64,000 nt of DNA. Source: Ceratodon purpureus (lineage: Eukaryota > Streptophyta > Bryopsida > Pseudoditrichales > Ditrichaceae). Shown piece by piece: positions 7,166-57,170 of the stretch (positions are counted from its first letter, which is position 1; each line of letters begins with the position of its first letter). The notes beneath the pieces are model-generated. The model searched no databases. It was not told the DNA's origin and saw only the letters and a program-made list of their open reading frames with translations. A program made the position numbers and the translations under genes. The stretch is taken from the NCBI GenBank assembly GCA_014871385.1, contig CM026426.1:14105810-14169809 (forward strand), read 5' to 3'.

Positions 7166-7170
7166 CATTC

Positions 7171-12772: not shown

Positions 12773-12850
12773 CGGGGGTAGCTTGTATGCGTGCGGCGAG
12801 CGGCGAGCGGAGAGCGGCGAGCGGAGATTTGGAGAGCGGAGAGCAGAAAA
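12773..12850 (+). repeat. Left terminal inverted repeat of the nested element
   Basis: CGGGGGTAGC at the outer end, then GCGTGCGGCGAGCGGCGAGC and further GCGGAGAGCGGCGAGCGG units, ending gatttggagag and agcagaaa. It matches the reverse complement of 34490-34562 with a few mismatches near the tip and a short extra GCGGAGA unit. Confidence 0.88.
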
Positions 12851-13089
12851 TGAAAGTCTAAATCTAAAAAAAGTAATTTTTTTACTAAAAATAAAGACTA
12901 CTTTAAGCAGATTAGAATATTCTTAGAATATTCCATGAATATTCTAAGAATATTACTATTTTTGGTAATTGTCATGACCCTATAACCGTGGACTGAAATT
13001 CACTATTTCTGATAATTCTCAATCCAGCTCTTATGTCCCTTTATTTAAAGGTGATATGACTGATTAACTAAATTTTGAATCCTATGTCA

Positions 13090-13485
13090 TTTTCTTCACA
13101 TTACTACATTTCTACCGATCTCATCATGTCATTTTTGATTATTTTTTATTCTTCCCATCTTTTCATTTCCAGTTCTATCTACCTTTTTCTTATCTCCAGT
13201 AATTCTGTAATAGCGTTGATGTTAATCGCCATTTAATCTTCCTTTTTTTGGTGTTCTAATTTTTCTAATTCACTTTTTTGATTTTTTATTTTAATTTTAA
13301 AATTATTCCCTTCTAATTTTATTTTTTAAATCCTGTTTTCTTTTCGTATTAACGCATCCTCTTTAAGTTGCATCTTTTTGAAATTAATGTCGATATTATT
13401 ATCTATATAAGTATTTGTTTGTTTTAATTTGTTTTATCTTTAATCATTTGATGGTGTTTATCATTTTTTCTATTTGACTTTAATT

Positions 13486-13523
<38 letters not shown>

Positions 13524-13795
13524 CATACCTTTTAACTTTTTATTGTTTTATCTTGTATCTTTTTAATTTTTTATTTCTTATACACTTCTTTCGATTTTTT
13601 CCCCAAAATATATATATATATATTTTTTTTCACTTCTATTTTTTAATTTTTAATTTTTTTAATCATTTATTCAATTTCTTCTTAATTTATTTCCATCATT
13701 TATCCTTTTTGTTTTATCTTGTAACTTTTTTACTCTTATTTTTTATTTTATTTTTCCTATTCTTTCACTCTGTAAATCTATATTTGTATTACTCA

Positions 13796-13841
<46 letters not shown>

Positions 13842-13980
13842 GTATTCACTCTGTATTCTATCATTTGTATTACAATTCAGTTATTATTTTTTATATGTGT
13901 TATCAGATTTATGTTATGTATTTTGAAGTATTAATTATAAATCTGTTAATTGAGAGAGCCCTTAAATGCATTAACGTCCA
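13090..13980. repeat. T-rich low-complexity block with poly-T and (TA)n
   Basis: A T-rich tract including a run of about 37 T near 13487-13523 and a (TA)n microsatellite at about 13796-13838. The long Phe/Tyr/Ile frame across it is a composition artefact. It lies just inside the left end of the nested element, and no gene is visible. Confidence 0.85.
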
Positions 13981-14259
13981 ACAATGATGCCTACCTTACC
14001 TTGTGATTATCCAGGACTACCTCTAATGAATGCCCTCCCTTCATGTTCACAAAAAGAATGATTTCCGACAATTCCAATCATAAAAATTTATTGCCTCATG
14101 CATTTTGCGGCTGTTTGCAACACTAGTCATAACTTTGTGCTTGATTACCACTTGTCCTTCAGTAGCCAGCATTCCATAGTTCAGCAAGTCTCTAGTTCAT
14201 AGTTGAGCATCGTCGTATACGTGTAGAGAAGATAGAAGTCAATAGTGAAATTTGAGAAG

Positions 14260-15744
14260 ATGACATCCAAGAGAAAGAAAGGTTGCAAGCGTCATCGGAC
14301 CATGCAACAGAGTGCTGGGCAGCGCGTAGCTGATGTTAGTGACGACAATAGTGGATCTCGGAGTGATGGAGAGGGTGGAAGTGATCGGGTTTTTAGCACA
14401 GAGGAGTTTGGAGACCCGTTTAACCTGAATGACATCGAAGAGGGACTTAGACAGCGTTTGATAGTTGCGGCCCCAATGCTCATGGGGCGAGATGCTGTCT
14501 ATGGTAGTGATTTCTTCACTGATGTTGTTGGACTATGTGATCAGGGGCCGGTTTTGAGAGATGTTTCCAAGGTTTAGAGCTTCATAACTGATGAGGAGGT
14601 GACAAGTGTGTGGAAGGAGGGAGTCTCAAAGGGCCGTTACGACTTCTCAAGGTGCGAGGATGAAGACCAGCTCAAGATGTTCGGACAACAGTACTTCAAG
14701 GTGTATGGTAACAGGCCCCATAACAACTACTTCTGTCTTCGTTTTTTAAAAGCTTGTTTCGCAACTTTTATTCATCAGAAGCCTGTAAATTGGTGTGCGG
14801 AAGCTCTGGATCGACACCAATCACGAATAAAGAGCGCATCCCGAAACCCATCTAAGTTAGGACCAGTCGCCACTAGATGCCAAGTGGAGGGTTTGTTGAA
14901 GATAATCAAGGGATTCTCAACTGTAGATATAGTTGAATCAGGACCTGATCCTAATGCTCGCGAGCTTCTAGTAGCAATAGAACTAGAGAAAGACAAGGCC
15001 GACATTGTGAAGACTATTGAAGAGCTGATTCAGAACTTACGGCTCAAGTACAACGACAGTCTTGAGAGGATGAGAGCCGAGTCATTTGAAATTGCTGAGG
15101 AGGATTTAAATGAGAAGTATGTTACAAAACAGAAGGAGGCTCAACAGATTCTTCGGAGTGTGGGTCCCACAGTCCAATACAAAGTGGCTGTTGCAGAATC
15201 TGAGTACTTATTCAAAGAACTCGCTAATATGAGGGAGGGTGATGCTCTTATTCGAGAGAACGTTGTTCAGTTGGAACTGAACTTGGCTAATGAAACTAAT
15301 CTCTTGGAGAATGCCCAAGCAGAGCTACAATCTTCTGCCATGGTAGTCTTGACAGCAAGGAGGCAGGTGCTCACTCTCAAGACTCCACGAGTCTTTCAAT
15401 ATCCTAAGCCTCCATCTGTACCACCACTGGGCTATGCTGGTAAGGAATCTTGTGCATATTGTGGCCTTGGATTTGTATGGAAAGCCGCTGTCCTCTCCTC
15501 ATTTGGGTGTTTCTTGCACCCTCCATGTGTTGCAGAAATAATCTCATCCCAGATTTACCAATGCAAGGTATGTAAGGATGTTCTCCTAGCCTCATCTCCT
15601 ATCCATCTAACTGAGGCATGGGTTGCCCAGTTCGGTGGCGTATTAAATCCACATCAGCAGATTGAGTGTGCAAGCTTCTCGGCCGTATTGGAAGTTGCAA
15701 GTGATTGTACTAATGCGCCTAAAAGTCTTGGAATCAAGAACTGA
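14260..15744 (+). CDS. Coiled-coil protein with C-terminal Cys/His zinc module, one in-frame TAG
   Basis: About 494 codons from ATG 14260 (basic N-terminus MTSKRKKGCKRHR, nuclear-like) to TGA 15742-15744, with no intron. An acidic Ser/Asp segment is followed by a TAG at 14575-14577 in a frame that stays open on both sides. Then come a helical domain (SRCEDEDQLKMFGQQYFKVY...) and a long coiled coil (about codons 240-370). At the end is CAYCGLGFVWKAA...GCFLHPPC...YQCKVC, spaced like a RING/PHD-type zinc module. I do not know its function; its place inside the nested element suggests a transposon accessory protein. The TAG means truncation, readthrough or reassignment. The codon use is clean and the reading frame is otherwise intact. 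Confidence 0.65.
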
Positions 15745-16389
15745 AATCTGAAAGAATTTTGAAGACAAAATTCAGTTTTCTTAATTCTGTTTCTCTTCTG
15801 ATTGATAGCCATAATCGTAGGATATACTTAGGCTTTAATATAGGCTATATGCTCTAAGGTTGAGTTAGTCTCGGCTGTTACTGCAACATAGGACTACAGG
15901 ATTTTAATAGAAAAAGTGTTCCAAAGACAACTACCTTAATATTGAGACTTTGACCTTCTAAGGTGTGGAAATATATTGTAATAGTACTTATTATTTCATT
16001 GCCCTTCATTCTTTATGGCTATCTGGGCATGTTACTCTAGTAGGACTTGATATTGATTACATGTAATATGTTCCACCTTGCATACTGTTTTGTAAAAGTT
16101 CTGATTATTATTGCTGTTATATATTACATTCCAGCGTCCATTTTATAGCATGTTGAATAGGACTTTGAGAATTTATTTCATGTTAAGCTGTCATTGTATG
16201 TTGCTGACGTTAAAGTAGATAATCTGTCCAGAAATATTGCGTTGAGACGTAAGCAGTGAGTATATATTTTAACGCTTGTAGTTGATAAACGTGCTAAACT
16301 GATCGGTTTCCCATGAGAAATTTTTATACGACAATGGTAACAAAATTCGAGTCTTGATGTTCAAAAGATATCAGTTATATGTTGGTTGT
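15745..16389. other. Spacer without a gene
   Basis: AT-rich DNA between the coiled-coil gene and the captured LRR exons. I see no coding or structural signal. Confidence 0.5.
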
Positions 16390-18305
16390 GCAGATGAGGT
16401 TGGCTCCACTCACTGCTCTGAGAAAGCTTATTTTGCTGGGCAATTAGCAATCAGAGTTGAACATTCCAGAGCTTGAGGTAGTGCTTGAGTTAAGCTTGAG
16501 GTAAGCTTCAGGTTTTCAGACATGTCAATTGACTATAATGGAATGCTCAGATGCATATCAATCAAGTTTACAATGTGCACGTTCTAGGTGTCTCCTACAA
16601 CCTTCTGGATGATACGACTGTCATAGCGCTATCATTGATGCCCTCATTGCGTAGATTTAACATGAACAAAAAAAAACTTGGAGTATTTGTGCGTATAGAT
16701 ACATTGGGTCTCGCAGGGAACAGTTTATCTTCTCTATTATCACTAAGCAATGTACTAGCTAATGAATGTTGTTTCTCCTGCGTCCTTCCTTTATGCAGCA
16801 ATATGATCCATTTCTTGAATTACATTTTCCACTTATGACTTCTCCTTGTGCGCAGTTACCATGGCTTGAAATGCTGCATCTGCACAGAAATCACAGTGAT
16901 GGTATTCCAGTCCAGATGAGTGAAGGGAGACCACAATTTGATTGTAAATCGTTTGTATTTCCATGAAGCAAAATGTACTATCATGTTTGCAGCTGTGAAG
17001 TTAGCCTACGGCCTGAACAGTAAGCAGGGCAATTTTCTATCTAGAATGCACTTGCAACCATCAGAAGCCACTTGTTCTTATCTTAATGTAGCATATTGCA
17101 GATCGTATCTATGGCAAGAGCATTTTCTTTGGAGACTGTGGACCTAGCTGAGAACCCAAACAATTATCACCACAATCTTATTGCCTTAGAAAAATTGCTA
17201 AAGTTGAGGAAGATGCAACTTATTAGAACCTTTTATTATACTATAAAACCGCTATATAATTGCTAGAAAGTAAGTACGTTCAAGAGGCATGTTTGAATTG
17301 AATTTCATTTAGAGTTAAAATCTGTAAAAATTTGTTGAGAAATTTGGGCTCACTTAATGTGATTCTTGCATTATTACAGGTGTTTCTATGGGTCACACCG
17401 TTATCTCGAACAATTAGTTATGATGGATCGGGAAAGTGCCATGTAGGCGTTCTGAACTTGAAGAGCTGCTGAGTGAGGTACTAAAAAAACACCTACCTTC
17501 TTGTACAAGTATTGTATTTATTTTTTCACTTCCGTTGACGACGCAAACAGATTACAAAACATCACAAGAGCCTACCATGTTCAAGGAATGCAGGAAATGA
17601 AAAAACTCAATAATGCACCAAGTCCTATCGAGCCATACCTGTCCAAGCAAGCAGCTGTAGCAGCAGCAAGAAATGCCTTAAAATTGAGTCCTCTTGAGGT
17701 ACTATTACATCGAATTCTGGAGCTATAATCACTACCAGCGACAATAGCTGACAAATGCCTTCTTATCTTAATGCTAAGACATCATTTTCACCATGACTGG
17801 AACACATCTCCGTATCGAACATTCTGAAGAACCGAAATATACTTCGACGCAGAGCCTATTGTTTTCAATATTTATCATACCTGATATTTGAGATCTTCAT
17901 TATCACGGAATATGCAATTATACGGAAGTTCATTATCTGGTATTAGCATACGCAATCAAATATCCAGTTAACCATATCAACACTAACCGACGCACAGTTC
18001 ATTTACCCATGTCCACTTTACTGTATTTCTGCAATACAAGAACTAACAGTGGCTCATCTGAACTGATGTGACAGGTTAAGGATACCGCAGAAGGCCAAAG
18101 GCAACGTTCTCAGGAAGATGGATCATATCCACTCTGCAAAATAGCATGGAAGTAAGCTACTGAAACATTAAACAATATAAGGTCGTCTACTGAGACAACA
18201 AGTAAAAGGCCTTCTACAGAGCAAAGAAAGAGGACTTCTACAGACACCAACAGCAAAAGGCCTTTCACAAAGCATAGACCAAGGTCTTCTGCAAAACCAA
18301 AATAG
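16390..18305 (+). pseudogene. Captured exons of a leucine-rich-repeat protein gene
   Basis: Several short plus-strand exon-like pieces encode LRR units separated by AT-rich, intron-like DNA. They are LTALRKLILLGN (16,405 on), MPSLRRFNMNKKKL (about 16,640), LPWLEMLHLHRN (about 16,858, after a clear AG acceptor) and FSLETVDLAENPNN...LEKLLKLRKMQL (about 17,125-17,215). Next come VDDANRLQNITRAYHVQGM... (about 17,535-17,697) and a basic Ser/Thr repeat (about 18,180-18,300, units like SKRPSTEQRK). The one-LRR-per-exon pattern looks like a host intron-containing gene copied as genomic DNA into the transposon, as in Pack-MULEs. No complete ORF can be assembled. A TAG occurs in the first LRR (16445). 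Confidence 0.5.
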
Positions 18306-19010
18306 GGTGCTTATAAACTCATTTAAGACGTGCAAAAACGATCATGGGAAGAGAATTGTGTTAATCTCGGACCCAGAAGAATCCATTCTCAATCATCATC
18401 TTGTGGTAAGTTACTTGCCAATCCTGGTGACTTTTCTAGCTGAATTTTTACACATGATTCATTTTGAACTATTGAGAGTTTTCATGCAATGATCTAGCAA
18501 ACAACAGGGGAGTTTAATCGACAAATTAAGTCGATATCCATGTCGCTAAAGTTGACATAATCCTATCAAAGTCGCAATCACCAACATTCCACAAAGAAAT
18601 GTTGGAGGCAACACAGTTTTGAACAAACGATACTCATCAAGGAATACTTCCCCTTTGAATTGAACCAACTGAACGTCAACGTGGGCCATTATTGGATGTA
18701 TTTAATTGTATGATCTGAAATCCAAGTGAGTTTCATGTGTCTCACATGAATACGAGCACTTTTTACTGCTTAATGCACGTGTAAGTTTCTGTGTGTTGCA
18801 TATTTTGCACAAAGAATTTGGACTCTGAATTACCGGATAAGTCATTACCGTATTGTGTATATTTTTTCACTTCCGTTGACGACGCTAACAGATTACTAAA
18901 CATCACAAGAGCCTACCATGTTCAAGAAATGCAGGAAATGAAATAAATGTCCTAGCGAGCCATACCTGTCCCAAGCGCAAGCAGCGGTAACAGCAGCAAA
19001 AAAATCCTAA
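17519..19010 (+). repeat. Direct repeat of one captured exon (about 17519-17690 and 18866-19010)
   Basis: The two intervals share long identical stretches, for example cacttccgttgacgacgc and aacatcacaagagcctacca. The second copy carries small deletions and substitutions. The downstream copy breaks the reading frame (ATGAAATAA context), so it is the more degraded one. Confidence 0.75.
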
Positions 19011-19213
19011 AAAACCTTAATTGAACAGAAAATGAACCAGGGAGGGAATGCTATTCTGGCTCAACTCTAAAGGCAATTACTTCAAATGGAAATCATTTCA
19101 TTACAAAATATGGACTGAAGTAAGGATTTGCATATAACACCAGAAAATAATCCATACAAGTATTACAAGTTATGGGGTCAACATAAGTCTCGAAATGTAA
19201 AAAATATTTCAAT

Positions 19214-22200
19214 CTAAGGTATGAACTCATCGTCGCTCTCTTCTGCAATATCATCTACAAAATAGAGTACCCTAGGATCATAATCCCTCTGATGGCTAGA
19301 TGAGGAGCTTGAGCTTGTTGTGGATTCTGCTGCATATCGACAGGCGGCCTCTTCAGCATAGCAAGGAAGTTCAAACCGCGAGCTTCTTGGTGAAGAATAG
19401 TTCCAACATGTAGTGGTGGTTTTCAAACTGAAGGAGAGAAAAGAAGTTAATCAATTACCAGAACTCGAATATAGAAGTATTATGAAACTCAAACAATAAA
19501 TAAATACGGACTTACTCACATAGATTAACCTCATCCTCCTCAGGTAGGTCTTCCTTGTAATCATCCTCTTCCTCTTCGTTCTGAATCAGCCGCGCCTCGT
19601 TTTTCTTGGTAGACTCTTGGAGGGGGCGGAGAATTTCTTCAAATATGGACGCGTCAGCCTCAAGAGCAACAACGTGCTTGTTGTAAGATATGGCTGCACG
19701 GACCGAATTCCTTGCAAAATACAGATCACGGTCAGAAAACCGAATATAATATTGAAAACAAAGTTACAGAGAATACTAGTGTCAAGGAACCACTCACCAA
19801 TGCCAGCAGTGAGGTCCGCCACAAGGCCGGCTCTTGGACAAAGTCCACCTATGAGAAGCTGCATGAGAGCCTCGGATTTCTCCTTGGGACCTCTCCAGAG
19901 CTTCTCATCCGACTTTCTCTTGAGTGCATTTTCTTTGGTGACGACATTGAAAAGTACGTCATCTTTGAGAAGATCAACGTTCTCAAAGCGGGGATCGGTT
20001 GTAATCAGAAGCTCCGCAGGTTGCCGTTTAGAGGAGTCACTTTTCAATCGAACGCACACCATCGCCTTAAACTTGAGAGTCTGAAATATCAAATTTTAAG
20101 AGACATTAGAATGTGCTCAAACATCGAAATGAGAAGTACACAGTATCTTAGAGAGTATGAATATTGGAAACTTACCAATTCTGAAGAATCCAAAGGATGA
20201 GCTAGATGGAGGGAGTTGATGATAGTCCACTCTCTTTTCAGCGTCAGTCTGTTCTTTTTGAAGAAGCTCGAAATCTCCTTGCCGGTGACAACACTGTCAG
20301 GGTAGAATATGAGTAATGCTCCATCGTCGTGAAGATACCCCCCGCAGAATCCTACGGTGTATCTGATAAAATCCTTCACTGTTGCATTCCAGTGGGGGAC
20401 ATCTGTTGCTGAAGTAGAGATTCCCGGGACATGACTTCCATCCGGGAAATCTGCAATGACCAGGTCCATAGCTGGCTTTAGGAGAAGCTTGCCATCGAAG
20501 TAATACTCTCGACCTCCACCAACCTAACATGATGTTATAAACTTATTAGTAAAGGCATCCGAATTGAAAAAGAGATATACAAAGAGTAAACAATACTGGA
20601 AGAGAGTAATTTACCTTTGTCATAAAAGCCACCATGGAATTCCATGTCTGAGGAAATTCCTTGTGCTTGTCCTTGTATGCCATGATCGCAGGAAAGGAAT
20701 CATTAATGACGAGCACATCCGAGGAGGGTAGGGTTGAAGAGCCAGGCTTGGCAGCAACCATGAACTTCATCGAAGGGGGAGTGAAAGCGTGTTTTGATAC
20801 TGGGAGGCTTGTTGATGCTGGGGCCGTGACTGCTGGGCGCTTGGCTTCTGGCTCAGTTTGACTTCGATTGTCAAGCTTTTTGGTCACAGCAACCATGGCT
20901 TCGATGTCCTCCTCCTCCTCGTCATCAAGAACCTCAACTACCTTCCTCTTCTCTCCTCTGCTTCTAGCATTTTTTCCTTTACCTCTTGATGTAGCCGCAA
21001 CTTTCTGGTTGGGTGAATCGGATGCAGGGGCCGAAATGGCTGGAGCCGGCATCTTAGATAGAGCGGGTTGGAGTGAGTCACGGAGTTCAATGTCAAAGGC
21101 AGGTGGTTTCTTCACAGGGCAGTCGAGGTACCATCTGCAACTGTCGTAGTGACATGGGTCCCAGACCTTCGTAATCCCCGGAGTGAACATAGTGTCTAGA
21201 TGGGCGGTATCCAAGTAATTTGGAAAAAAGGCCGGGACTCTAGTCACAACCTTTCGTTTTAGGAGAACATATTTGAAATACCTGTACAGAGTTCTTCGTA
21301 AAGCCTGCTGAAATCCCGGTTGTTGTGCCGAAGTCTTGTTCTTATGAGCTTGGTCCTCCCCAGTGAACGCCCGGAAAAATGCAGTATCCCAAAGGGAGCA
21401 TCGCATCTCCTCAACCCAGTCGAATATTGTAGGGATAACGTTCTCACCCTCTGGAGAATAATTTATTGTAACCCTAGGTCCGTTAAAACACCTTCAAATA
21501 AGATCTCTGCCTCATCAGCCAACTGCAAACAAAGAACATTGGAATTAGTCTACGACTTTACTTGCACAAATAAGTCCTAAAGTGTCAAAGAAACCGGGCC
21601 GGCACTTCCAATATTTACTGAAGCACTTAAAAATTTGCCGATGCCTTCACCCAGGATTTCACCCGAGACTAAGTGCCGGCACCGGCACTTCAGTTGAATG
21701 CCAACCACGAGCTACATTCTCACAGGTTTCCAGCTGCAGCGAACGACTGCCGGCACCGACAGTTCCCATGAAGCCTTCACCATAGGTATTTTGCCAACAC
21801 CGGTAATTTGCACATCTAAAAACTTTCTAGTTCTTTGTCCCCAAACTTTCTAGTTCTCTGTTCAAAAGACCAAATCCTCTTGGATTAGAATATTCTTTGT
21901 CAATGAAATCCGTGTCCAAGGAGTCTGTTGAGTATGAATATGGTTCGTGGAACACAATCCTGAAACATGCACAGAATTGTAAGTACTGGCAATAAAATGA
22001 TCCACCAATATAACCATCATGAACTCTAGCAATTCTGGAGTGCAATCAAAAACTGTAATCAAGGACTTCGAACTCGATCATCATCAGCGAAGCGAAATTG
22101 CAACTTTAAGGAAATAATGGACACACTAGACCAAAATTTAAGAATTGAGTACCTAGAACCTTTCAGAACCCTGCAATACTAACATCAAGCAATATCCGAA

Positions 22201-41199: not shown

Positions 41200-41260
<61 letters not shown>

Positions 41261-43841: not shown

Positions 43842-44149
43842 AGTTAAATGAACCTCCGTTTCATGATACTGCCTTCCATCAAATGGGACTGATGCAACAT
43901 GTTATTTTTCCATGCAGCCTAAATCGAGCACTCTTATCGTATCATTAGTCATCATGAATTACCATTACCAGTTTTCACATATCAAAGGATGACTGAAGGA
44001 AGTGTATGATTTGCATAATGACTTGTCGAGGGCATTGTCACATTAATATGATTTTCCAGCATGTAGCCGCCAGTGGAAGCCCACATTTTTGTGATCTGAT
44101 CATAACTTGTTCCCGCCATGATTCAGTTATCTCTTCTACGTCATCATTC

Positions 44150-45839: not shown

Positions 45840-48800
45840 ATGACTACAAACGACCCTTTTCTCTTCAGGATTGCTATTCGGCAGGACGATTGTCCAAGCG
45901 ATTGCGACACAGATTTTTTTGAGGAGATAGAAGAAGTTTGCTTTACGGTTCGAAGCGAGGTGGTGGATACAAGTGCAGGGTGGTTTTTGGCAAGAGAGTC
46001 CGCAACGTCACCTACAGCTTCCCTGTACGTCAAATTTCTAGAGACAGACAGCCATGTTCTAGTGACGGGCCACGATATAGTATCCTGCAAAGCCACACAT
46101 CCTTACATATATCTAGTGCTTCAGTGACCCGATGGTCTACGGGAGTCCTTATTGATCAAGACTTTGGATTTTGGTCTAAACCACCTTGAATTGCGAAATG
46201 CATGGAAGGACACTAATCTAGCCGCATTCATTCCTGAGGCTTTCAACAAGGAATCGAACAAGTCTGGCGTCATTCAAACACAAGTGGAGAAGTTGATCAC
46301 TAAATTGAAGGAGTCCGTCACGAAAAAGAAGAAAAAGGAGAGGAACAAGAAGAAGGACAAGGGGAGTTCCTCAATTGGTGATAGATCCGAATATAGAACC
46401 AGCCGTTGTTGATAGTGTATGAGGTGCTCCTAAGAAGGTGCCTAGAGGCAAGAAGCAGCATAAGAAATCTACAGAGGTGGTGGTGGAACAAACTGTTACC
46501 GAGACAACAGATCATGAAGCACTAGAAGATATTCCTAGTGGCCATAACCTATCTTCGAATAGCAATGCGGACGGTACAGTTGTGGCAGAGGAGTGCATCC
46601 GGAGGTTCAAGAACTTCCGAGATGATTTCAGGAAGTATTACCCTCTCGGGTATGATACTCTGGTGGATATTGATGTGGAACAGGTGGATATTGCACCGTG
46701 CAACTACATTGTCCGAGTCCTGGAGAGTGAGGGTGTTACCGCGGTTTATAACACTCTGTTGACGCAGGTTATTCCAAATAAGCAAGTCCTATGTCTCTAT
46801 CCGCAGGGCTTGACAAAGATCCCAACTTCATGGGAAGATATCAAGAATCTCCGATTTTACGCCATCAACGGCCAACACACTGTGAAGGCAGCTCAAAATA
46901 TCTTGAAGTCCCTCGGAAGGACATGCTGCGTAAATGGAAAGCGCAGATTGTATGGGATCTTGAAGCTTGGAAGATCCAAGCAATATCGGATTACTATAAC
47001 CAGTCCAACCAAATCAATCCGTTCAAACCAACATGGGCTTTGAACTTGGTTCATGTGAGGCGGATCTGGGTTGAGATGGGGAAGCCGGAGAGAGTTAGGG
47101 GTAATGCGTCTGACAAGGCAAGCCCCGAGATGTCCAAGAAACGGAACGATTGGAATGTAAGTGACGCTCCTGAACCATCTCTTTGAATTGTAATTTACCT
47201 GCCACCGATATTGAGTTGGTTAATATGAACTCAGGTCTGACTATGACAGAGTAGTACTGCTTTGAGAGTATATCAAGGCGGTATCCCGAATCTCAATTAA
47301 ATTTTCTTTTAAGATGATCACATGTATCGGATGTTTAGAAGAAGATTGCCCTTTAAATCACTAGTAGTCAAATAAGTATCCATTCGAACTCGTAGAAAAC
47401 ATTAAGACAAAAGGTTGATATGGAAGTAACAGTTCTGGTAGATCTTGACAGTTCCGTTCTTTCGATGTCCACATTTACGTTTCTTAGAAAATGTAATTGA
47501 CACCTAAATCTCCAGCGATAAAGAATGACTCCATTCGACCTTAGACAATGTTAAGATGGTCTGCTTAATCTGGGAGTTGCAATTCATGCTAGATATTAGA
47601 AGTGTTTCTTTGGAAAACCAAGTTTACGTGATCTATAAAATACGAATTGCACCTTTATCGCCAGTAGTGAAGATTTTATCCATTTCTACTTCAAGACAAC
47701 ATTAAGATGGACAGCCTAATCTTAACATTACCATGATCGCTCGATTTGTTTTTATTTTTTATTTGATTAGCAGCTTTACTAGATCTATTGAGGACGAGTA
47801 AAACCAAAATGACGAGTAGCAAAGACAATATCCCTTTGTATTCAACAAGAAAATTAAGAAGACCACCTTAATATGAATGTAAAAGTTCTTGTTGGTCTGT
47901 GTATTTTCCTTTTAGGTCTAATGTTTTCGCGAATTAGTTATTCATACTTTCTCTTACTTGACAACAATTTGCAACAATTGATCAAGTAGTGTGAGTGAAT
48001 ATTGTTGCACGAGTTTACAAAAAGGACTGACCTAAAGCTCTGCTTTGGACGAGTTTGTGGGATTCGTACTTCTTTCTTGATCTAACTGGTTATATCCTAC
48101 TCCATTACAAACTACTCTAGATTTTACCGTATTAGGTGTGTACCCTGATACTTAAAAGGGGAAATAATCATCAGTCAACATTAAGGTGTCCAGCTTAATT
48201 CAATTATTGTCAATCAATTGTTTATTATTCTCTTGGGTTGACCAGTTTCGTATAATGTTATTGGACTGACATACCCTTCTCCCTCCCGCAGAGATTCTTG
48301 AATTCTATGATACAGACGCTGTCAAGTGTGCGGTCAAAGAAGGACACCGCAGAGAGAGATGACAAACTCATCAAGTGGACTTTCAACGAAGTCAGATTTG
48401 AGTGGACGTTAGTCAGATCTTGCGATGACTGCCGGAAGAAGTGGGAGCGATTCTTTACGAAGCACGTCAAAAGAGAACTGATTTGCCCTGAGCTTGGACA
48501 CCAGATTAAGGATACACCAAACTTCAAGAGCAACATGAAGATAATTGCCCCACTAACAAAGAACTGGTTCAAATGCGTAGAGTCCCTTACCGAACGAGAA
48601 ATTGACAAGCTCGTCACGTATCTCTTGAACGAGAAGACTGATGATGACAAGCCTATCCCTGTATACCCCAAGGTAATCCCCTTTACAGTGAAAGGCGCTT
48701 GGAGGAGTCGCAGCATTCTCTCACCTCTAGAGTGGGGAAACAGGAAGAGAACAAAGAGGCATGTCATTGGGGAATTCAATCGTTACACTAAGGGTGAATT

Positions 48801-51800
48801 AGGATTGATTGAAACTACGGCAGTGAAGGGACTAGACGAAGCTCACGATGTACACCGCAAGAACTGGAGGACGTTCAAGAAGGTCCACATGATCTCTTCG
48901 AAGACGATGGCAAATGTGGTGGAGTCAGCAGGGGAGAAATTCTTCAACAATTTTGAGGGAAGGAATAGACTCGACAAAGGATTCTTACCCGCACCGTTCA
49001 TTGAGTCAATTCGAGCCGTTGTTGAAACGAAATCCAAAGATGTCCTCACTACCGATGTTGGTGCTTGCATTCTGGTAAAAAATGAAATCACAACACGAAG
49101 AGGCGAGGGGGTAAAGAAGGGGAATTTCACCACAGTAGGGGATATGCAAACAGGGGACATTAGAGAGAAGACTGATTCTGAATGGGTGGCATTCATTGAT
49201 TTTTGCAATGTAGAAGGTGTCGTACCTAGTTCCGACGTAGAGCATCTTTTCTGGGAGTCATTTGTCAAGAAGCTTGAGGCATTTAAGATTCCTAGATGGT
49301 CCGAGACACCAGTTTGGATCTAGATTGCTGACGATTCACGGAAAGAGTTCAGGAGTTATATAAAAGGAAGCTGAAAACAACTCATCTGAAATCGGCCGAG
49401 GCATACTACCACCCGGACGCTATGGAAGGATTTAGAAGCGAGAAAAAGGTTAAGGGGAATGTGGTGACCATTTATTACATTGTGAAAGAACAGTGGGTCG
49501 TGCCGGCATTGACTAATGTCTTCAGGTGTCTGAAGTTGAAGGTGTACACGGAAGGTAAATACCGGTACTACACAGGAGAACTCCGGATGGAAACTTATAT
49601 GAGGATCCTTCAGGAAGTATCCGGAGCATTCAGGCCGGTTTTCAACATCTACGGCGGGCAAAAGCTAATGCTTGCGTGTCAGGTAAACATCCTAACCAGA
49701 TTCATAGAGATATATAGATTTTCTACTTGAATCCTCTTCTGCGATTGTGTCCACCAGAGTGTTATTATGTTGCATGACTTATAAGAGATGATTGTACATG
49801 TATGATGCAATTGCCACATTTTTATATCTGCGTTTTTGTAAATAATAGGCAACATATAAATGCAAACTGAATTAAGGTGGTCTCCTTAATTCATTGGAAA
49901 TATTGGACGTTGTCGTACAGCCTAAGACCGTCAGCTGACTACTTTGATAGATTCTATGTACATTACGTAGTCCTTACAATACATGAAACTATTTTAAAAA
50001 CAATTATACTTGTGTTTGGGGGGGAGAGCACAATAAAGTGGACCACAAAGTGCAAAATGTGACCACTAACAAGTGAATATGAAGTGTGCTGTTTTTGAAG
50101 GCTCAAAGCTGATTTTGAGGATTTTGGTGTAGTTTTTGAGCATTTTAGTCACTTTCTAAGGTGTCATAAGGTATCTTACACACACCTTCACAAAAAGAAC
50201 ATCCTGAATTGAAACTAAATTTGACCACTAGTTCTAAATCATGAAAATGAAATTTTCCAAAGTCTTGATTTCTTCATTTGGGGCCCTCTATTGTCTTTAG
50301 ATGATGTTTTTTTCAATTTAAAAAACAATGTTCGGTGAAAAAAAAGTGACAAAAAGTATCGCGGAAAAGACCCTCTTAAAAAGCATCCTTGCGATACTTT
50401 TGGAACCCTAAATCAATCAATGAGTATATGAATTGACTATTTTAGAATACCTCTTAAACATACGGAGGGCCCCGCAAAATTAAAAGTGATTTCGGACAAA
50501 ACTGTAAACCGTTTTGTTCACTTTTCCAAATGAGACCATTCACTTTGCCCGAGTTCGACGTCTCCGATTTCCATTGTAAACTCAATGTCATCTCCCGCAA
50601 CTTTGAGAAGTTGAAGAAGATCAAGTCTACTTTCCGTATCCCAAACTTAATCTTGCATCGACATAACATAGATCCCACTTTCTCTAGTGTTTACGGAAGG
50701 GGCTGAAATTGGTGAAAAGATAAGCACTTTTTTGGTTCACTTTATTGTGCTTCCCCCCTTGGATGACCTTGATTAAGATGATCACCTGAATCTTGAATAT
50801 GTTATGTCTTTGTTGATACGATATTCTTTTGGATCAGACAGTGTGTAATTGAATATGTCCGTTTGGAGTTTAAACAAAGGAATTGCTAGTCAGTCACTTG
50901 CAATGTCAAAGTCTAAGTATTTGTATGTTGTTCGCAGATGCTGAAAATGAATGTGTATACCTTTTGTGACCAAGACTCCTTAGACGATCTCCTTTCCCTC
51001 AAGTCAAAGGCTGCAACCATGAATCATCAAGACTTTCTTGCTCCTCAGCGTTTAGGTAATCCTAGAACGATCGTTGCTTTGGGTGCTACTAGCAGTGCTC
51101 AATAAGAGCCAAGTAGTGGACAAGTAGAACCTAGTACTGGAGGAACACAGTCTTCAGATTTGGGTGACCGAGTTGTACAGAGTGGATCTTTTACAGCACG
51201 TACAAATGCTTCTTTGGAAGAGACTATGGAATCTGGTGTTCTGACTAATCAATCTTTTCGGAAACGTCCACATGGAGGAGATTCTGATGACTTTGGACCC
51301 AACAAAAATGACTTCATCTCTCCAATGAGTCACGGGAGTTCTCCTACATTCAACCAGTCCGGTGGTCCCTCTGATCAGCGTGAGACTAGGACGCAGTTTA
51401 CCAAAAAACCCCGTGATAGCGCTGTTGAAGATTATCCCGACATTAAACTCTTGCAGAAGTTGATAAAGAAGGCAGAGTTAGAAGTGAAGCTCAAAGAGCT
51501 ACAGGATAAGCTACAGCCAGCTGCTCCACTTGGACTTCCGCGTGGTGGATTCGGGCCGCCCTTGTATGCGTCTTACAACTACCCCTATCGCACAGGTCCT
51601 TACGGGGAAAGCAGTGATACTCAGATGGTTGATGATTTTGGTTATGATGAGTGCGGGACAATGAATCCACCATAGTATATACGTGGAAATTCTAACCAGT
51701 TTGATGGAAGAAGAGATGCTATCCGTTTTCAGACGCACTCTCGAAACCACAATCAACTTACGCTTACGAACACGTCGGTGGTTCCTTTGAGACAACGAAC

Positions 51801-53888
51801 TCCAATCATTGTCGAACCTATGGATACTGAGCATCAAGTAGGGTCAGAGGAAGATAGAGTAGGGTCAGAGGAAGATAGATAGATCATCCGATGGACGATA
51901 TGGTCACCAATGTGGAGCAGGTGTTGGAGAATCAGCATGTCAATACGTGTAGTGTTGTGGAGGAAAATACGAACATCGTGATGGAGCAGCAGGTTGCGAC
52001 ATCTATGGAGCCATCACTAAACAAGCCAAACCAGATTAAGGAGGTCTCCTTAATTCCTCCTAGTCCAACAGTCGTAGAACATGAATCTGCGACCGTCCTA
52101 ACCAAAGGTCTCGGAAATCTAGAAGTGAGTGCGATTCCCTCTACAGACACTGAGATGAACGACGACATGATTGAGGGGTCGATCTTAATCCTATCAGGTG
52201 CAGATTCCGTAGATCGAACTGCAAAGACTTCTTAGATATCAGTGCCAACTCCAGATTCAAACTCGGTATCACCCGCTTGCACAGAGACTGAGTCTGAGCA
52301 AATTAAGAAGACAAGCTTAATTCCAGAAGTAGTCCATAACGAAGGGTTGGATGATGTGAGGGATCATCAGGTTGCTTCCATAGATGAAGCGTTGTGTGGA
52401 GAATCTAGGAGTCCTTTGAATTCTCCCATTGAACCTGATGTTATGACGAGCAAGAACTCCAGTGACATTTTGTTGCATCCTTTAGAAAATGTCGCTCAGG
52501 AAGCTATCCCGGTTGTGGATGATGATGATGATATAGAAGAGGGTATTAGAAAGGATGCAGCGGATATTACTGGACCCCGGGATATAGAAATGACAGGTGG
52601 AGAACAAACAGACATGAAATTGGGGGGTCAGGAGCTGAAGGTGAATTGTGATGACGAGAAGGAGACAGTCAGCAGTGACACTAGCGGGGGAAAGAAGCCC
52701 TCCGAGAAGACATTGGAGACGGATAACGAGGCAACGCAGAGTGATGCTAGCTTGTCAAGGAAGAGATCATCGCTCCGACTTGGCAAACGACAAGAGGATG
52801 CCGGGAATGTTGTGGTTGCAAGCCAGTCTCCATCAACAAAGAAGATCACGGAGAATAAGAAAACCGAAGCAGCGTTGTACAGTGGGAAGGGGAAGGTACG
52901 TGAATTAAAAGATCTTTGATAATCGCAATATGTAATGCTAGGATGCTTGGTCACTGTCTACGTGATGATATCCGGATCTTCTTAATAGGTTTAAGGTGTC
53001 ATCCTTAATCCTCGGTTAAGATTAGGTGACGTAGATACCCTGTTTGCACAGGATTGCGCTATACCCAGTAGGATCGAAGCAGCAACGTCGGTGCCCAACA
53101 TTGAAGCGCCTTTAAGAGCACCTGTCCCTATGAAAGCATATTTCATTATCTTTGAAATTCAGAGAGTGTTGGCAGCAATCCAATATTTAGGGGATTCTGA
53201 AGTCTCAGGTCTTGTTCACACGCCGCTAGATTGTTGTTACGATGAAGTCTCGCTCACCTTAGTTGGAAAATGTGATTTAGTTCGTGTGCGTTCCAACTTC
53301 CTGGAGTTCTGGGAGAAACTCTCTGCACTTGAGAATGTTTTTCCATTAGTCTGGAGTGATCTCCAATATGATCGTGTACGAGACATCAGTTCTTTTTTAT
53401 TTCAGGAGTGTAGAGTGAAACCGGGTAGGATATTTTCTCGGTATGACATGAAGGAAATGAAAGATAAGAGTGGCTACAAGCATAGGAAACCCCTCGCTGT
53501 AGATTCTCTTAAGAAACATGGCGATGTGTATTATTTGAAAGACTTGAGGGAAACTCTTTGGACAAGACCATACCAATGGAAGTTCAACCCCAAGCCCCCA
53601 GAAGGAGTTTATTTAGAAGTTACTAATATCCTGTTGATGAATTCAAATCGAGAGACAAATGTAACTTCTCCTGGGAATGTACTCTATACATCTCCATGGC
53701 CTTATCCAACCGATCGTCACTCCAACCTTGTGAAGAATCTCTTTCCGTTTATCCGAGAACTAGCCGGCTCTGGAGAGAATGTTAGGGAATTTATGAAGAA
53801 GAATCGGAACATGGTTCTTGGCTTGGATCCATTGGGTAGTAAGGATCATGTTGTAGTCGAACTGAGGAAATGGCAGAGAGCTAAATGA
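45840..53888 (+). CDS. Second ParB/Srx-like + beta-class methyltransferase-like gene (multi-exon)
   Basis: Segments: an uncertain leader 45840-46410, a ParB-like exon to 47156, then exons 48293-49682, 50938-52895 and 53052-53888 (TGA). All later introns are GT-AG. The ParB-like fold shows VDIAPCNYIVRVLESEGV and FYAINGQHTVKAAQNIL; GQHT stands where ParB has GxHR. A long helical domain (DKLIKWTFNEVRFEW...) follows. Next come a disordered region with a coiled coil (LLQKLIKKAELEVKLKELQ) and an acidic Ser-rich tail. The last exon has a methyltransferase-like end: TDRHSNLVKNLFPFIREL (motif X-like), AGSGENVREFM (motif I) and NMVLGLDPLGSKD (motif II). TAG/TAA lie in frame at 49321, 51103, 51673 and 52233. 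One-base slips are likely near 46400, 46918 and 49345, with a gata slip near 51880. Palindromes fill the introns. Its relation to the 19-28 kb gene is architectural, not close. Confidence 0.5.
50018..50758. mobile_element. About 740-bp non-autonomous TIR element in an intron
   Basis: GGGGGGAGAGCACAATAAAG at 50018 is matched by its reverse complement CACTTTATTGTGCTTCCCCC at 50739-50758, with the repeat running about 24 bases. The interior has no transposase-like frame. It lies in the intron 49683-50937 of the second methyltransferase gene, just upstream of a palindrome copy at 50773. I could not fix the target duplication, so the superfamily is open. Confidence 0.65.
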
Positions 53889-54924
53889 TTGATGTGTTGA
53901 TTCCATGGAATAGATAATTGAGAAAGCAGAAGTTTACCTATCAAGGATTTATGTAAGAATTTCTTTTTAGTAGTGTGATAGCACTTCTTGAGTGCTGATA
54001 AGTAATATATGTTCTCGAGGACAATATTTCTGAATATACTGCTTCTTTTGATTGAATGTAAAGGTTAATTCACGGTTGATTTATATAGTACTCGTATGGT
54101 TTGAATGTGATGTCTAAGAGTAATGTGGAGAGTGTTTAATGCAACTGTCTGGTTTCTCTGATTTCTGTAATATATATTTCACGCATTTGGATAATTTTTT
54201 TGTTCCCAATGTGGTAATATGATTTGGATCTGGCTCTTATGATCTCAAACAATTCGCATTAGAGTCTTAGATTGCTTTTACAACCGAGATCAGAGATTTG
54301 ATACTGTTTAGTTTCTTTGGTCCGTTGAATACGTCTTACAGGAATTTGACTTGAAGTTCTTTCTCTTTTACTGGTACGTGTGTGCTTAATATTCCATTTC
54401 TTTCACCTATTCCTTTTTCCTATCTTGTGTTTGTACTTTGAGAATTAACGTATTCATCTGAATGCTAGATCAATGTACCATTTATTAAATTTTGTTTTGG
54501 TATGTTGTCTTACAACTGATATTTTTCTGTTGTTCATGTCGTTCATCTGCTTATGTATTCTTTTTCAGAGATGGACATGTCTGTTCTATATGGGCTTCGC
54601 ATTTAAGATGACCATCTTAATCCACACCTTAAACAGTGGTATAAGGTTAAGTAGTCCTCCATTCTATTCATCCCTTGATCCTTGGTGGACCAAATTTTAA
54701 ATTGTATTTGACGTCTACTAAGAATATGGCTGTTCGATATATTCGTTGAATATATTATTTGTCTCTTGTATTGTCCTTTCCGTCATTACTTCAGGTTACA
54801 CTTTGTGTAGATATGGTCATTTTTTTTAATTTCTTTTTTGTTTTTAAAAATTCCGTGGTATTGAATCAATATGCAAATTCGATTGAATCTACTAGATATG
54901 AAGCATAACAAGAGTTTGATAGAT

Positions 54925-55190
54925 ATCCTTGGTATATGAGTCCTGCGGTCTTGGATTAAGATGATCGTCTTAATCTGAGACCGCAGAGGTCATATACCAA
55001 GGATATGTACTGAACTCTAGTAGATACCCTCAGTATATAACATCTAAGGTTATGGATTAAGATGGTCATCTGAATCCATGACCGCCGATGATATATACTA
55101 AGGGTATCTACTGGAGTTTAGTACATATCCTTGGTTTATGACTTCTGCGGTCTTGAATTAAGATGATCACCTTAATCCATCCCCGTCTGC
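54925..55190. repeat. Three tandem 101-bp units forming long hairpins centred on the palindrome
   Basis: The 18-bp palindromes at 54956, 55057 and 55158 are spaced exactly 101 bp. Unit 1 is an almost perfect inverted repeat of about 84 bp: atatccttggtatatga + tgcggtct + palindrome + agaccgca + tcatataccaaggatat. Unit 2 has a similar but different arm (agataccctcagtatata...tatatactaagggtatct). Unit 3 keeps only the left arm. This is the only place where the palindrome is the core of a larger stem. Confidence 0.9.
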
Positions 55191-55319
55191 AAATGGACTC
55201 TTTTCTCGGATGGATTTGTATGTTTTCACTAATCGTGAATTCGTTTTCAAGATCATTTCAGCGTCGTTCTTGAGGCATTTTATAATTTTATGTTTATCTG
55301 TCTTCAGAGATCTTCAAGA

Positions 55320-56445
55320 ATGTCTAAAACAGCAGTTCGTGGCGTTAAGGGAATTTGTGTTACATCGGATACATGCTTTCTAGAGGATATACATACTTCT
55401 CCTGTCCATCGAACTCGTTCGATGGCCCGACATACTAGAGGAGCTGAGTAGCTGGAAGTTGGATGAGGACAATTTTTAAGTAGATGGTAGAGTATATGTG
55501 GTCTACTGTTTAAGTAGAATGGAAGATACGAATTGTTATTGTAATTGAAGTTATATCTGAACTTAAGTCGTTCTTTGATTAAGGTCTTAAATTCTGTGGT
55601 GTCGTTATGCTCCACAAGATACCTTGGGTGTGGCATCGAAGATTCAAACGGTTCCCTCAGGCAATACTAGAACGAGATTGGTCATTCTCGACCTAAACCA
55701 CCTGCTGTGCAATATTGTTTTTGTCCATACAAAGAAAAAAGAAGAGATTCCCGCGCACACTTATGTGGAATGTCAGGAGGATATTCAGTATGAGAAGCCG
55801 GTTCCGATTAAGGCTTCTACAAGGGAATCGTATAGGCTAGTGACTGCTCGTCCAAATGTCCGTTTATTTCTTCAGAGGCTCATGGCGTTAGCACATGTTG
55901 GGGTTTGGACGTGCATGTCGAAGGATATGGCTATCCCAATAGTGTCGTGGTTGTTTGGAGAATCTCAACCGATGTTTCTTCTAACCCAAGAGTATTGCAC
56001 TACTCTGAAACATGGCGAGAAGAGTTTAATGTATCGTTCTCAGGATGCACTTCATGAGGATTTCTTCAAAGAACTTCCTCTCTTCTAGAAGTTGGAATGG
56101 CCTATAGATTTGGGAGGCTTTGTGCCATCACCCGAGAATACGGTCATTGTTGATGATACTCCCTTGGAGAATTACCTGAATCCAGAGGGAATTTGTATTT
56201 ATCCTAAGCCTTGGCATAGCGCAAATGAATCGCACAGTGATATTCTTAAAGATATGCGCGATCTCTTCAACTTGAGTCGTTCGGATCTGTTTGTACCACA
56301 GTATGTAGATATCTTGATGGTGGATCCTAAGGGATTTAGAGCTTATGGGCAAAATCCAATTTCAAGAGATAGACAGATTGCGGATACGCTGAAGCCGTTC
56401 ACTAGGCTAGTTAGACCTAGTATACTGTTCTTGCGAAGACGTTGA
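55320..56445 (+). CDS. FCP1/SCP-like HAD phosphatase-like protein with altered catalytic motif
   Basis: A probable first exon starts at ATG 55320 (MSKTAVRGVKGICVTSD...) and is followed by an intron of uncertain borders (about 55450-55617). The main exon then runs to TGA 56443-56445. Motif I reads LVILDLNHLLCNIV. FCP1-family enzymes have DxDxT, so the nucleophile Asp is kept but the second Asp is Asn and Thr is Leu. The T/S motif is seen in VGVWTCMSKDMAIP and motif IV in NTVIVDDTPLENYLNP. TAG at 56086-56088 lies between the motifs in an otherwise continuous frame (ELPLF/KLEWPIDL). The protein is thus probably a pseudo-phosphatase or non-catalytic binder. It follows the second methyltransferase gene on the same strand and may be cargo of the outer element. 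Confidence 0.6.
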
Positions 56446-56470
56446 AGTCGTTCACTAGGCTAGTTAGACT
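56399..56470 (+). repeat. Short direct repeat across the stop of the HAD-like gene
   Basis: The phrase cgttcactaggctagttaga occurs at about 56397-56416 and again at about 56449-56468, separated by 52 bp and spanning the TGA stop. It looks like a recent local duplication. Confidence 0.7.
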
Positions 56471-57170
56471 CCAGTAGATGGTATTAACGGAGACTATGAG
56501 ATTAAAGAGACAGTCTTAATCATTTTGAACATCCTCCAGGTGGTCCGTAATCTGCCTTCATACTCTTACTAATTTGTGGATCGATTACTTTGGAGTAAAA
56601 CGTGATCGATTAATTTTTGAAAATCAGATTGTGTTTGGTCTCGTCTTATTTGCCTTATTCATCCATTACATGTTAGTAAGGAATAAGTGTAAGCTGTGCT
56701 TTGAAGTAATCAATGTCCTTAGGGAATGTATGCATTTCGTTTCAGTATCTTGGAATAGTGCATTTACTGTGTCCTCTATTCTTCGATTCGGTGCATGTTG
56801 TTTTGGGTTCTATACATTGACGAATTGGTTACAGTGGAGGACTTGGAATCACGTCTATACAATGCACATATTCCCTTGATTTTATGTTCTTCATTGAGGC
56901 CGTGTAGTCGGACAAGCTTTAATTGAAAGAGTATTCTTAATCTATCAGTCGCAAATATTTAGTGTTTTTCTGCTTTTTTATGTAGAGAGTGAGTATCCGA
57001 AATCACTTTCGATGTAGAATGTGAACCTGAGGTTGTACCCTAAACTTTTGGCACCATTTGATGTCAAAGTTACATCCCGAAATCAAGTTCAAAATGTATT
57101 TGGTTCTGTATGCCTATAACTGTTCTTTACCTTGGCAACTTCTGACATTTGCTAGATTATATATGACAGG
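56446..57170. other. Spacer without a supported gene
   Basis: It contains palindrome copies at 56502 and 56923 and a hydrophobic open frame (56574-56879) that I judge to be composition noise. Nothing else is supported. Confidence 0.45.

What the first reader, a model, noticed from the sequence alone, without database searches (positions are those of the whole stretch)
12773..56940. Two transposon systems each pair a ParB-methyltransferase gene with its own 8-2-8 palindrome: possible self-marking or anti-silencing
Both motifs are 18 bp with 8-base arms and a 2-base centre, but they are completely different in sequence. Each is concentrated in the non-coding DNA of its own element and absent from the other. 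Known precedent in logic: VANC proteins of VANDAL MULEs bind short motifs in their own non-coding DNA and remove silencing, and ParB proteins bind palindromic parS sites. Inference: protein and motif have co-diverged so that each element recognises only itself.
Basis: inference. Interest (0 to 1): 0.9.

Follow-up and report, generated by a model that had tools for sequence, protein, structure and literature searches.

The report
Moss transposons carry co-diverging palindrome arrays
Two nested giant plant transposons each carry many copies of their own long palindromic DNA site around a gene for a probable DNA-binding, methyltransferase-like protein, and in related copies in the same genome the site changes together with the protein, which looks like a way for a transposon to recognise its own DNA.

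Summary
Element A (12774-34561, 10-bp target duplication) is nested in element B (5987-58088) and splits B's DUF7869 gene. A blind palindrome scan finds two families: all 15 motif-A sites lie in two predicted introns of A's gene, and 33 of 34 motif-B sites lie in B. Half-sites vary independently, as expected of dimer binding sites. A's gene is a methyltransferase relative with a non-canonical catalytic motif; ParB rests on a local box only, and B's methyltransferase is not established. The host genome (362 Mb, unnamed; fits the moss Ceratodon purpureus, recalled) holds many relatives of both genes. A-type copies at 79-97% identity carry TGCCGGCACCGGCA arrays; copies at 68-76% carry TGCCGTTAACGGCA; one at 63% carries mixed half-sites. 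Between the 97% and 82% groups the introns share only the motif sites, while the protein is under purifying selection. This supports co-divergence of protein and site within A's family, with one exception at 66%. Best reading: VANC-like self-recognition by a ParB/methyltransferase-like protein. Similar proteins are known from algal transposons; the co-diverging palindromes are the new part.

The parts
12774..34561 (.). Element A, 21,788 bp, long terminal inverted repeats, MULE-like
   Evidence: 68-bp inverted repeats 90% complementary; perfect 10-bp duplication GTACCTGCTC; weak SWIM hit in ORF 30813-32075
12764..12773 (.). Target duplication of A, left copy
34562..34571 (.). Target duplication of A, right copy
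5987..58088 (.). Element B, about 30.3 kb without A; A nested inside
   Evidence: 25-bp perfect terminal inverted repeat 5987-6011 / 58064-58088; AATG both sides; motif B in both arms, none outside
19515..26741 (-). Gene A (ParB/DndB-like box + N6/N4 methyltransferase-like): predicted exons 26741-26612, 24949-24343, 24241-24043, 23940-23527, about 21473-20615, 20523-20176, 20080-19798, 19711 to about 19515; with the acceptors tested the frame could not be joined between the fourth and fifth exon
   Evidence: splice-site scores and open frames; no transcript data
24343..24949 (-). ParB-like exon of gene A (WDGNHRLQA box)
   Evidence: DndB sub-threshold 0.12; 150 scored matches in the own genome, this copy included; dN/dS medians 0.04-0.12
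19515..20523 (-). Methyltransferase-like part of gene A, order motif IV - X - I; motif IV is DFPD
   Evidence: PHROG 3008 E 1.1e-7; PADLOC methyltransferase models; hhalign 61.7 vs maximum 23.0 of 30 shuffles; DFPDG-type in all 18 relatives in which the exon was found
24950..26611 (-). Predicted intron 1 of gene A, 11 of 15 motif-A sites (25030-26363)
21492..23526 (-). Predicted fourth intron of gene A, 4 of 15 motif-A sites (21672-23453)
28288..32078 (+). Probable transposase ORFs of A (CxC...CxH SWIM-like); no motif A here
   Evidence: ORFs; SWIM E 0.38; MULE assignment also by reading
6691..12043 (.). Motif B, left-arm set, 9 sites
35919..55175 (.). Motif B, right-arm set, 24 sites; includes a 101-bp tandem array 54947-55180
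10400..11620 (-). DUF7869 exon of B, candidate transposase
   Evidence: Pfam 5.5e-42
34471..35394 (-). Upstream part of the same B gene, cut off by A; continues at 12763-12600
   Evidence: joining the flanks over the empty site gives one open frame of 332 aa
46423..53885 (+). Gene B: ParB-like exon (YAINGQHTVKAA), several further ORFs, C-terminal ORF 52995-53885; this copy's frame breaks after residue 163 of the first exon
   Evidence: relatives at 94-98%, most with 464-aa open frames
55591..56442 (+). NIF-like phosphatase ORFs in B
   Evidence: Pfam NIF 4.6e-8 and 0.089

Best explanation
Each element encodes a DNA-binding protein that recognises a long palindrome carried in many copies by its own non-coding DNA. 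For A this is a ParB/DndB-like protein fused to an N6/N4-methyltransferase-like domain, and the sites sit in two introns of its own gene. The protein most likely binds as a symmetric dimer and keeps its own element active, by countering host silencing or by regulating its own gene. Protein and site change together between subfamilies, so each recognises mainly itself. SHOWN: element-specific sites, their place in predicted introns, independent half-sites, subfamily-specific site variants (A family), purifying selection on the protein, loss of intron similarity except at the sites. INFERRED: that this protein binds these sites, that it binds as a dimer, and the anti-silencing or autoregulatory outcome.
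For: Sites: two palindrome families, one per element. All 15 motif-A sites in two predicted introns of gene A, 17% of A; P about 3e-12 if placed at random. The arms do not covary (permutation p 0.76 and 0.61): each half-site fits a consensus by itself, as protein sites do; a hairpin under selection should show matched changes. Genome: motif A (up to 3 mismatches) in 30 of 30 A-type loci read (the window copy and 29 others), upstream of the ParB exon at the intron-1 position and again downstream, none inside that exon. Intron pieces of the 97% and 82% groups share only short matches: 72 of 91 pairs have any, the longest 40 bp, and 136 of 136 matches overlap a motif site although sites make up 13% of the sequence (medians). 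Site variants follow subfamily. Counts: TTAA type 1344, reversed control 0; CCGG type 556, control 19; motif B 357, control 0; a made-up palindrome of the same shape 0. Motif B: 45 of 50 listed sites within 30 kb of a B-type ParB exon, 13 of 15 such exons with a site, none within 10 kb of a listed A-type exon. Protein: dN/dS medians 0.04-0.12 (ParB exon), 0.11 and 0.31 (motif-IV and motif-I exons).
Against: No binding, expression or methylation data. ParB is not supported by any significant profile match. B's gene is not shown to be a methyltransferase. The part that would read the site was not identified; protein letters of TTAA-type copies could not be fetched, so residue-to-site covariation was not tested. 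Three CCGG clusters (20 of 50 listed sites) and 6 of 50 TTAA sites have no scored ParB exon nearby; 10 more TTAA sites lie 5-22 kb from one. One 66% exon has a CCGG site. Flanks of motif-A copies are slightly more alike than random places (30.9% against 28.5%, sd 0.5), so some local duplication took part. Many copies are decayed: stops in the aligned piece of the fourth exon in 5 of 20 regions and of the fifth in 8 of 19. Gene models are predictions.
Confidence: 0.6

Rival explanations
1. The palindromes are sites of the element's transposase, used in transposition.
For: Large transposons often carry internal or subterminal transposase sites (recalled). Motif B occurs from 0.7 kb inside B's left end. 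Some TTAA sites on C1 lie 5-22 kb from the ParB exon, possibly elsewhere in the same element.
Against: In the window all motif-A sites are more than 8 kb from both ends of A, in introns of the other gene, none in the transposase ORFs.
Confidence: 0.12
2. The palindromes are bound by a host transcription factor and act as intron enhancers of the ParB/methyltransferase gene.
For: Intron-1 position and high copy number.
Against: Subfamilies in one genome use different sites; a host factor would favour one site.
Confidence: 0.12
3. The protein methylates its own element at or near the palindromes and so marks it (self-marking).
For: Methyltransferase relation of A. The Ectocarpus paper proposes binding and modification of the own transposon sequence for a similar protein (PMC12477816, passages read).
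Against: Motif IV is DFPDG-like in all 18 relatives in which the exon was found, never DPP followed by an aromatic residue.
Confidence: 0.12
4. The arrays are repeats spread by tandem duplication and gene conversion without function.
For: Recurrent 74-75, about 106 and about 140 bp steps between sites; a 101-bp tandem array in B; slight excess similarity of motif-A flanks.
Against: Sites are the only thing shared between introns of the 97% and 82% groups.
Confidence: 0.04

Closest known systems
VANC proteins of VANDAL elements, Arabidopsis (PMC5735166, PMC10398659; passages read)
   Same: Element-encoded protein, short motif in many copies in the element's own non-coding DNA including introns of the VANC and VANB genes, tandem dynamics, different motifs in related elements
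   Different: VANC21 motif is the 9-base YAGTATTAY, and 'palindrom' does not occur in PMC5735166; no ParB or methyltransferase part is mentioned in the passages read; anti-silencing is shown for VANC and untested here
ParB-like + N4/N6 methyltransferase genes of algal giant transposons, e.g. Sola1-1_Ec32 of Ectocarpus (PMC12477816; passages read)
   Same: A 21.5-kb transposon with such a gene on the strand opposite the transposase, as in A; proposed to bind and modify its own element
   Different: There a Sola element in a brown alga; 'palindrom' does not occur in the paper; here MULE-like, with candidate sites and a non-canonical motif IV
Phage ParB-CTPase-fold proteins fused to N6_N4 methyltransferase (PMC12704722; passages read)
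   Same: Same pair of domain types, if A's ParB-like exon is one
   Different: Prokaryotic; no tblastn match of the ParB-like exons to 50,697 phage records at E up to 10
ParB-parS (recalled)
   Same: Palindromic sites in several copies near the gene
   Different: No ParA or segregation context seen in the window, no significant ParB profile match

Membership tests
VANC-type anti-silencing system | Element-encoded protein with a motif array in the element's own non-coding DNA | tested here: met
VANC-type anti-silencing system | Motif and protein diverge together between related elements | tested here: met
   A family only; one exception at 66% identity
VANC-type anti-silencing system | Protein binds the motif | not testable with these tools
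   needs EMSA, DAP-seq or ChIP
VANC-type anti-silencing system | Loss of DNA methylation on target copies | not testable with these tools
   needs methylomes
VANC-type anti-silencing system | Homology to VANC proteins | not tested
   no VANC sequence was fetched
N6/N4 DNA methyltransferase (gene A) | Profile relation over motifs X-I-II | tested here: met
   PHROG 3008 1.1e-7; four methyltransferase models and mad2 in PADLOC, E 0.0008-0.025; hhalign; Pfam N6_N4_Mtase 0.0011, below its cut-off; no methyltransferase relative found among PDB sequences
N6/N4 DNA methyltransferase (gene A) | Catalytic motif IV [DNS]PP[YFW] (recalled) | tested here: not met
   DFPDG in 14, DFAEG, DYPDG, DFPEG, DFLDG in one each of 18 relatives; so related by descent, activity doubtful
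N6/N4 DNA methyltransferase (gene B) | Profile relation | tested here: inconclusive
   score 21.0 vs maximum 20.4 of 30 shuffles, 14.2 vs 22.7 of 60 with a four-row profile; no hits
ParB superfamily (A and B) | Significant profile match | tested here: not met
   no ParB hit; DndB (a ParB-superfamily protein per PMC10853773, passages read) at E 0.12 for A only; PF02195 finds nothing in the own genome
ParB superfamily (A and B) | Fold | not testable with these tools
MULE (element A) | 8-11 bp target duplication and terminal inverted repeats (lengths recalled) | tested here: met
   10-bp duplication, 68-bp repeats
MULE (element A) | MULE transposase domain | tested here: inconclusive
   no MULE Pfam hit; SWIM E 0.38

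The most novel reading that the evidence does not exclude
A eukaryotic self/non-self code of transposons: a prokaryote-type ParB/methyltransferase fusion, its enzyme part turned into a non-catalytic module, reads a long palindrome that each transposon lineage stores in arrays within introns of the protein's own gene, and protein and palindrome have radiated together into several mutually exclusive pairs within one plant genome.
Probability: 0.45. Interest if true: 0.92.

Novelty: new variant of a known kind. Interest (0 to 1): 0.82.

Why it matters
Here a second system with an apparently different kind of protein shows the same signature. Algal ParB-methyltransferase transposon proteins have been proposed to bind their own element; this gives candidate sites for such a protein, and natural site variants in one genome to test with. 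Specificity becomes testable by changing one base pair in each half-site and one in the centre.

Tried and rejected
Hairpin, RNA or cruciform function: rejected as main reading because arms do not covary. Dispersed larger repeat as carrier of the motif: no flank pair of 105 (A) and 1 of 528 (B) reaches 60% identity, though motif-A flanks are slightly above random. Rfam and tRNA: nothing. CpG protection: sequence around motif A, sites masked, is not more CpG-depleted than the rest of A; dropped. Homology between the A and B proteins: no significant hit; the single-sequence hhalign top match falls on the ParB-like box, without significance. Relatives of the ParB-like exons and of B's C-terminal ORF in viral contigs, of DUF7869 in prokaryote contigs, of the ParB-like exons in phages: none. 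PDB sequence searches: nothing meaningful. The name DUF7869 occurs in no held paper. Species: C. purpureus is recalled from genome size and the 110-Mb contig; no call names it (the taxonomy look-up, and a paper listing, do not settle it).

Rows dropped and limits of counts: the one weak motif-B site inside A (23948) was left out, giving 33 of 34. Phage SIO-2, not annotated as a methyltransferase, was in the profile (A score 49.1, B 14.2) and left out (61.7, 21.0). The regions L035-L054 re-cover the loci L006-L025 and are not counted as further loci. Site consensus was taken over sites chosen for likeness to the core, so its conservation there is partly by construction; one search does not have this flaw for the shared matches. 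The 'mixed' pattern was written after seeing L058 and is descriptive only; the TTAA pattern came from L055-L057, and the C1 exons used to test it had not been read. Genome pattern listings show only the first 50 sites. In one search one 58% fragment had been missed among B-type exons (13 of 14); one search recounts 13 of 15. The length of contig C5 in the sequence fraction was assumed. The motif-I column was mis-set and redone.
Full report
WHAT WAS CHECKED. The finding says that two transposon systems in one window each have a ParB-methyltransferase gene and their own 18-bp palindrome. The two palindromes are real. Position weight matrices give 15 sites for motif A, all inside element A, against a mean of 0.05 in 20 shuffled windows, and 34 sites for motif B against 1.1. 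A scan for palindrome families with 8-base arms and spacers 0-6, made without using the motifs and with low-complexity sequence left out, returns these two families (26 and 13 members at spacer 2) and otherwise nothing larger than 4; one shuffle per spacer gave at most 3.

ARCHITECTURE. A has 68-bp inverted ends, 90% complementary, and a perfect 10-bp target duplication, so it spans 12774-34561. Outside it lies a second, larger element: a 25-bp perfect inverted repeat at 5987-6011 and 58064-58088 with AATG on both outer sides. Motif B fills both arms (9 and 24 sites), with 1 weak site in A and none in the outer flanks. So A jumped into B. The insertion cut an exon of B's DUF7869 gene: joining the two flanks over the empty site gives one open frame of 332 residues, and DUF7869 itself matches further downstream at 5.5e-42. 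DUF7869 as B's transposase is an inference.

GENE A. Splice-site scoring gives an open frame of 450 codons from an ATG at 26741 through four exons. Intron 1 holds 11 motif-A sites and the fourth intron 4, together all 15, in 3.7 of 21.8 kb (P about 3e-12). The last three exons are a methyltransferase relative: PHROG 3008 at 1.1e-7, the best of five methyltransferase families, four methyltransferase models and mad2 in PADLOC, and a comparison with a profile of three phage methyltransferases scoring 61.7 where 30 shuffles reach at most 23.0, with A's motif IV (DFPD) aligned to the phage DPPF. A PDB sequence search found no methyltransferase. The exon limits are predictions. In this copy the frame could not be joined between the fourth and fifth exon with the acceptors tested.

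GENE B. The ParB-like exon and several long ORFs lie at 46423-53885. This copy's frame breaks after residue 163 of that exon, while most relatives at 94-98% identity have 464-aa open frames. No profile names a ParB or methyltransferase domain. The C-terminal ORF scores 21.0 against the phage methyltransferases with shuffles up to 20.4, while four other segments of the two genes sit at or below the shuffle median; with a four-row profile it did not stand out. The label for B stays open.

PARB. No ParB profile reaches significance. For A the nearest is DndB, E 0.12, which a paper places in the ParB superfamily (PMC10853773, passages read). The box WDGNHRLQA of A and INGQHTVKA of B resemble the ParB/DndB box by my reading.

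WHAT KIND OF SITE. The outer positions of both motifs carry information beyond the 18 bp. The two arms of each copy do not covary (p 0.76 and 0.61): departures from consensus on one side are not matched on the other. This argues for a double-stranded site read by two protein subunits and against a hairpin. Surroundings of the sites in the window are not copies of one larger repeat: no flank pair of 105 for A and 1 of 528 for B reaches 60% identity; mean flank identity is 29.9% for B against 29.3% at random places, and for A 30.9% against 28.5% (sd 0.5), a small real excess.

THE GENOME. The window is part of an unnamed 362-Mb genome; size and a 110-Mb contig fit the moss Ceratodon purpureus (recalled). 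A's ParB-like exon has 150 scored matches, this copy included, out of 1878 candidates. In all 30 A-type loci whose DNA was read (the window copy and 29 others, 81-97% identity) motif A is present with up to 3 mismatches, 7-17 times per 3.6-kb locus and 8-21 times in the 9.3-kb regions of 20 of them. Sites lie upstream of the ParB exon, at the intron-1 position, and again 1.5-3.4 kb downstream; none is inside the ParB exon; one locus has one at +1217. Numbers and positions differ between copies, with repeated 74-75 bp steps. Between the 97% and 82% groups the 1440-bp intron pieces share almost nothing: 72 of 91 pairs have any match, the longest is 40 bp, and all 136 matches overlap a motif site although sites make up 13% of the sequence (one search gives a median longest match of 24 bp, and 1060 bp within the 97% group). 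The ParB exon shows dN/dS medians of 0.04-0.12 (dS between the far groups is saturated, so the lowest values are rough). Many copies are decayed: stops in the aligned piece of the fourth exon in 5 of 20 regions, of the fifth in 8 of 19.

CO-DIVERGENCE. Four more distant copies were read for 1.1 kb upstream of the exon. At 76, 72 and 69% identity the exact TTAA-type core TGCCGTTAACGGCA occurs 7, 3 and 5 times; at 63% there are 14 sites with mixed half-sites; none of the four has the CCGG type. The 29 nearer loci have 215 CCGG-type sites, 0 TTAA-type and 2 mixed. Between CCGG and TTAA type one base pair changes in each half-site, symmetrically, and one in the centre. Genome counts: TTAA type 1344, reversed control 0; CCGG type 556, control 19; a made-up palindrome of the same shape 0. 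On C1, whose 68-76% copies had not been read, the exons at 76, 75, 72 and 68% have TTAA sites within 5 kb and the 79% exon none; 34 of 50 listed TTAA sites lie within 5 kb of these exons, 0.2% of the sequence. The listing ended before the 74% exon. CCGG arrays (10, 8 and 11 sites within 5 kb) sit at the 95, 79 and 81% exons of C1 and the first 7.8 Mb of C2, none at the eight exons of 68-76%, and one site at a 66% exon where the listing ended (Fisher p 0.018). Against the reading: three CCGG clusters (20 of 50 listed sites), five TTAA sites at C1:7.09 Mb and one at 21.2 Mb have no scored exon nearby, which may be a limit of the 150 scored or real solo arrays; ten further TTAA sites lie 5-22 kb from an exon and may be elsewhere in the same elements.

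FAMILY B. Its exon has 150 scored match rows of 386 candidates; these include second pieces of the same copies and a distant group at 27-40% identity. Motif B has 357 exact genome sites, control 0. Of 50 listed, 45 lie within 30 kb of a B-type exon of 50-98% identity, and 13 of 15 such exons in the stretch listed have a site, the two without being fragments; none of the 50 is within 10 kb of a listed A-type exon. So motif B is kept across a wide range of identity. A change of motif within family B was not looked for, because no more letters could be fetched.

MECHANISM. The pattern fits a protein that finds its own element: sites tied to the own family, placed in the protein gene's own introns (A), kept while the surroundings turn over, and different where the protein differs, all in one host with one set of host factors. 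VANC proteins show this pattern and there it serves anti-silencing (PMC5735166, PMC10398659; passages read). I commit to VANC-like self-recognition, with anti-silencing or autoregulation as the outcome; binding and outcome are inferred. Methylation as a mark is less likely: the exon with motif IV was found in 18 of 20 regions, and in all 18 it reads DFPDG or a close variant, not DPP plus an aromatic residue. This exon is under purifying selection (dN/dS 0.11; 0.31 for the motif-I exon). A conserved but non-canonical motif suggests a kept, changed role.

NOVELTY. ParB-like plus methyltransferase proteins are reported for an Ectocarpus Sola transposon, with mention of green and red algal ones, and were proposed to bind and modify their own element (PMC12477816, passages read). 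My searches, judged by titles and abstract starts, listed no paper that gives binding sites for them and none on such proteins in a land plant; most subscription papers are not held. The new parts are the co-diverging palindromes, their intron position, the nested pair and the non-canonical motif IV. I file it as a new variant of a known kind.

Noticed in passing
55591-56442 +: B carries a NIF/SCP-like phosphatase gene fragment (Pfam NIF 4.6e-8) whose first motif reads DLNH where a second Asp is usual (recalled).
   Followed up: no
G000:C6 (110.5 Mb): By my reading of the listings, a large share of the A-type and B-type ParB exons lie on the giant contig C6, a possible sex chromosome; not counted or normalised.
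   Followed up: no
52036-52320 +: Three motif-B sites fall in ORFs of gene B's linker region; two of them (52036, 52303) encode a repeated IKxxSLIP peptide, so the site seems to have been tolerated inside coding sequence.
   Followed up: partly
L058 (G000:C3:3687438-3688537): In the 63% subfamily the site is built of two different half-sites, in tandem units of about 140 bp with one site in each orientation per unit.
   Followed up: partly
G000:C1:16394904-16397128; C2:4487508-4490430; C2:5384081-5385469: CCGG-type palindrome clusters without a scored ParB exon: possible solo arrays, degenerate copies or lower-scoring relatives.
   Followed up: no
G000:C1:18072539-18084139: An A-type ParB exon (68%) and a distant B-type one (39%) lie about 11 kb apart on the same strand: another nest or one element with both.
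   Followed up: no
17509-17605 and 18850-18946: A 97-bp direct repeat, 94% identical, 1.3 kb apart within A; meaning unknown.
   Followed up: no
40205-41420: Very AT-rich stretch (21% GC over 40001-42000) with a 153-bp tandem repeat and TA runs inside B's right arm, free of motif B.
   Followed up: no
43298-43825 +: 231-bp direct repeat pair, 87% identical, 297 bp apart, in B.
   Followed up: no
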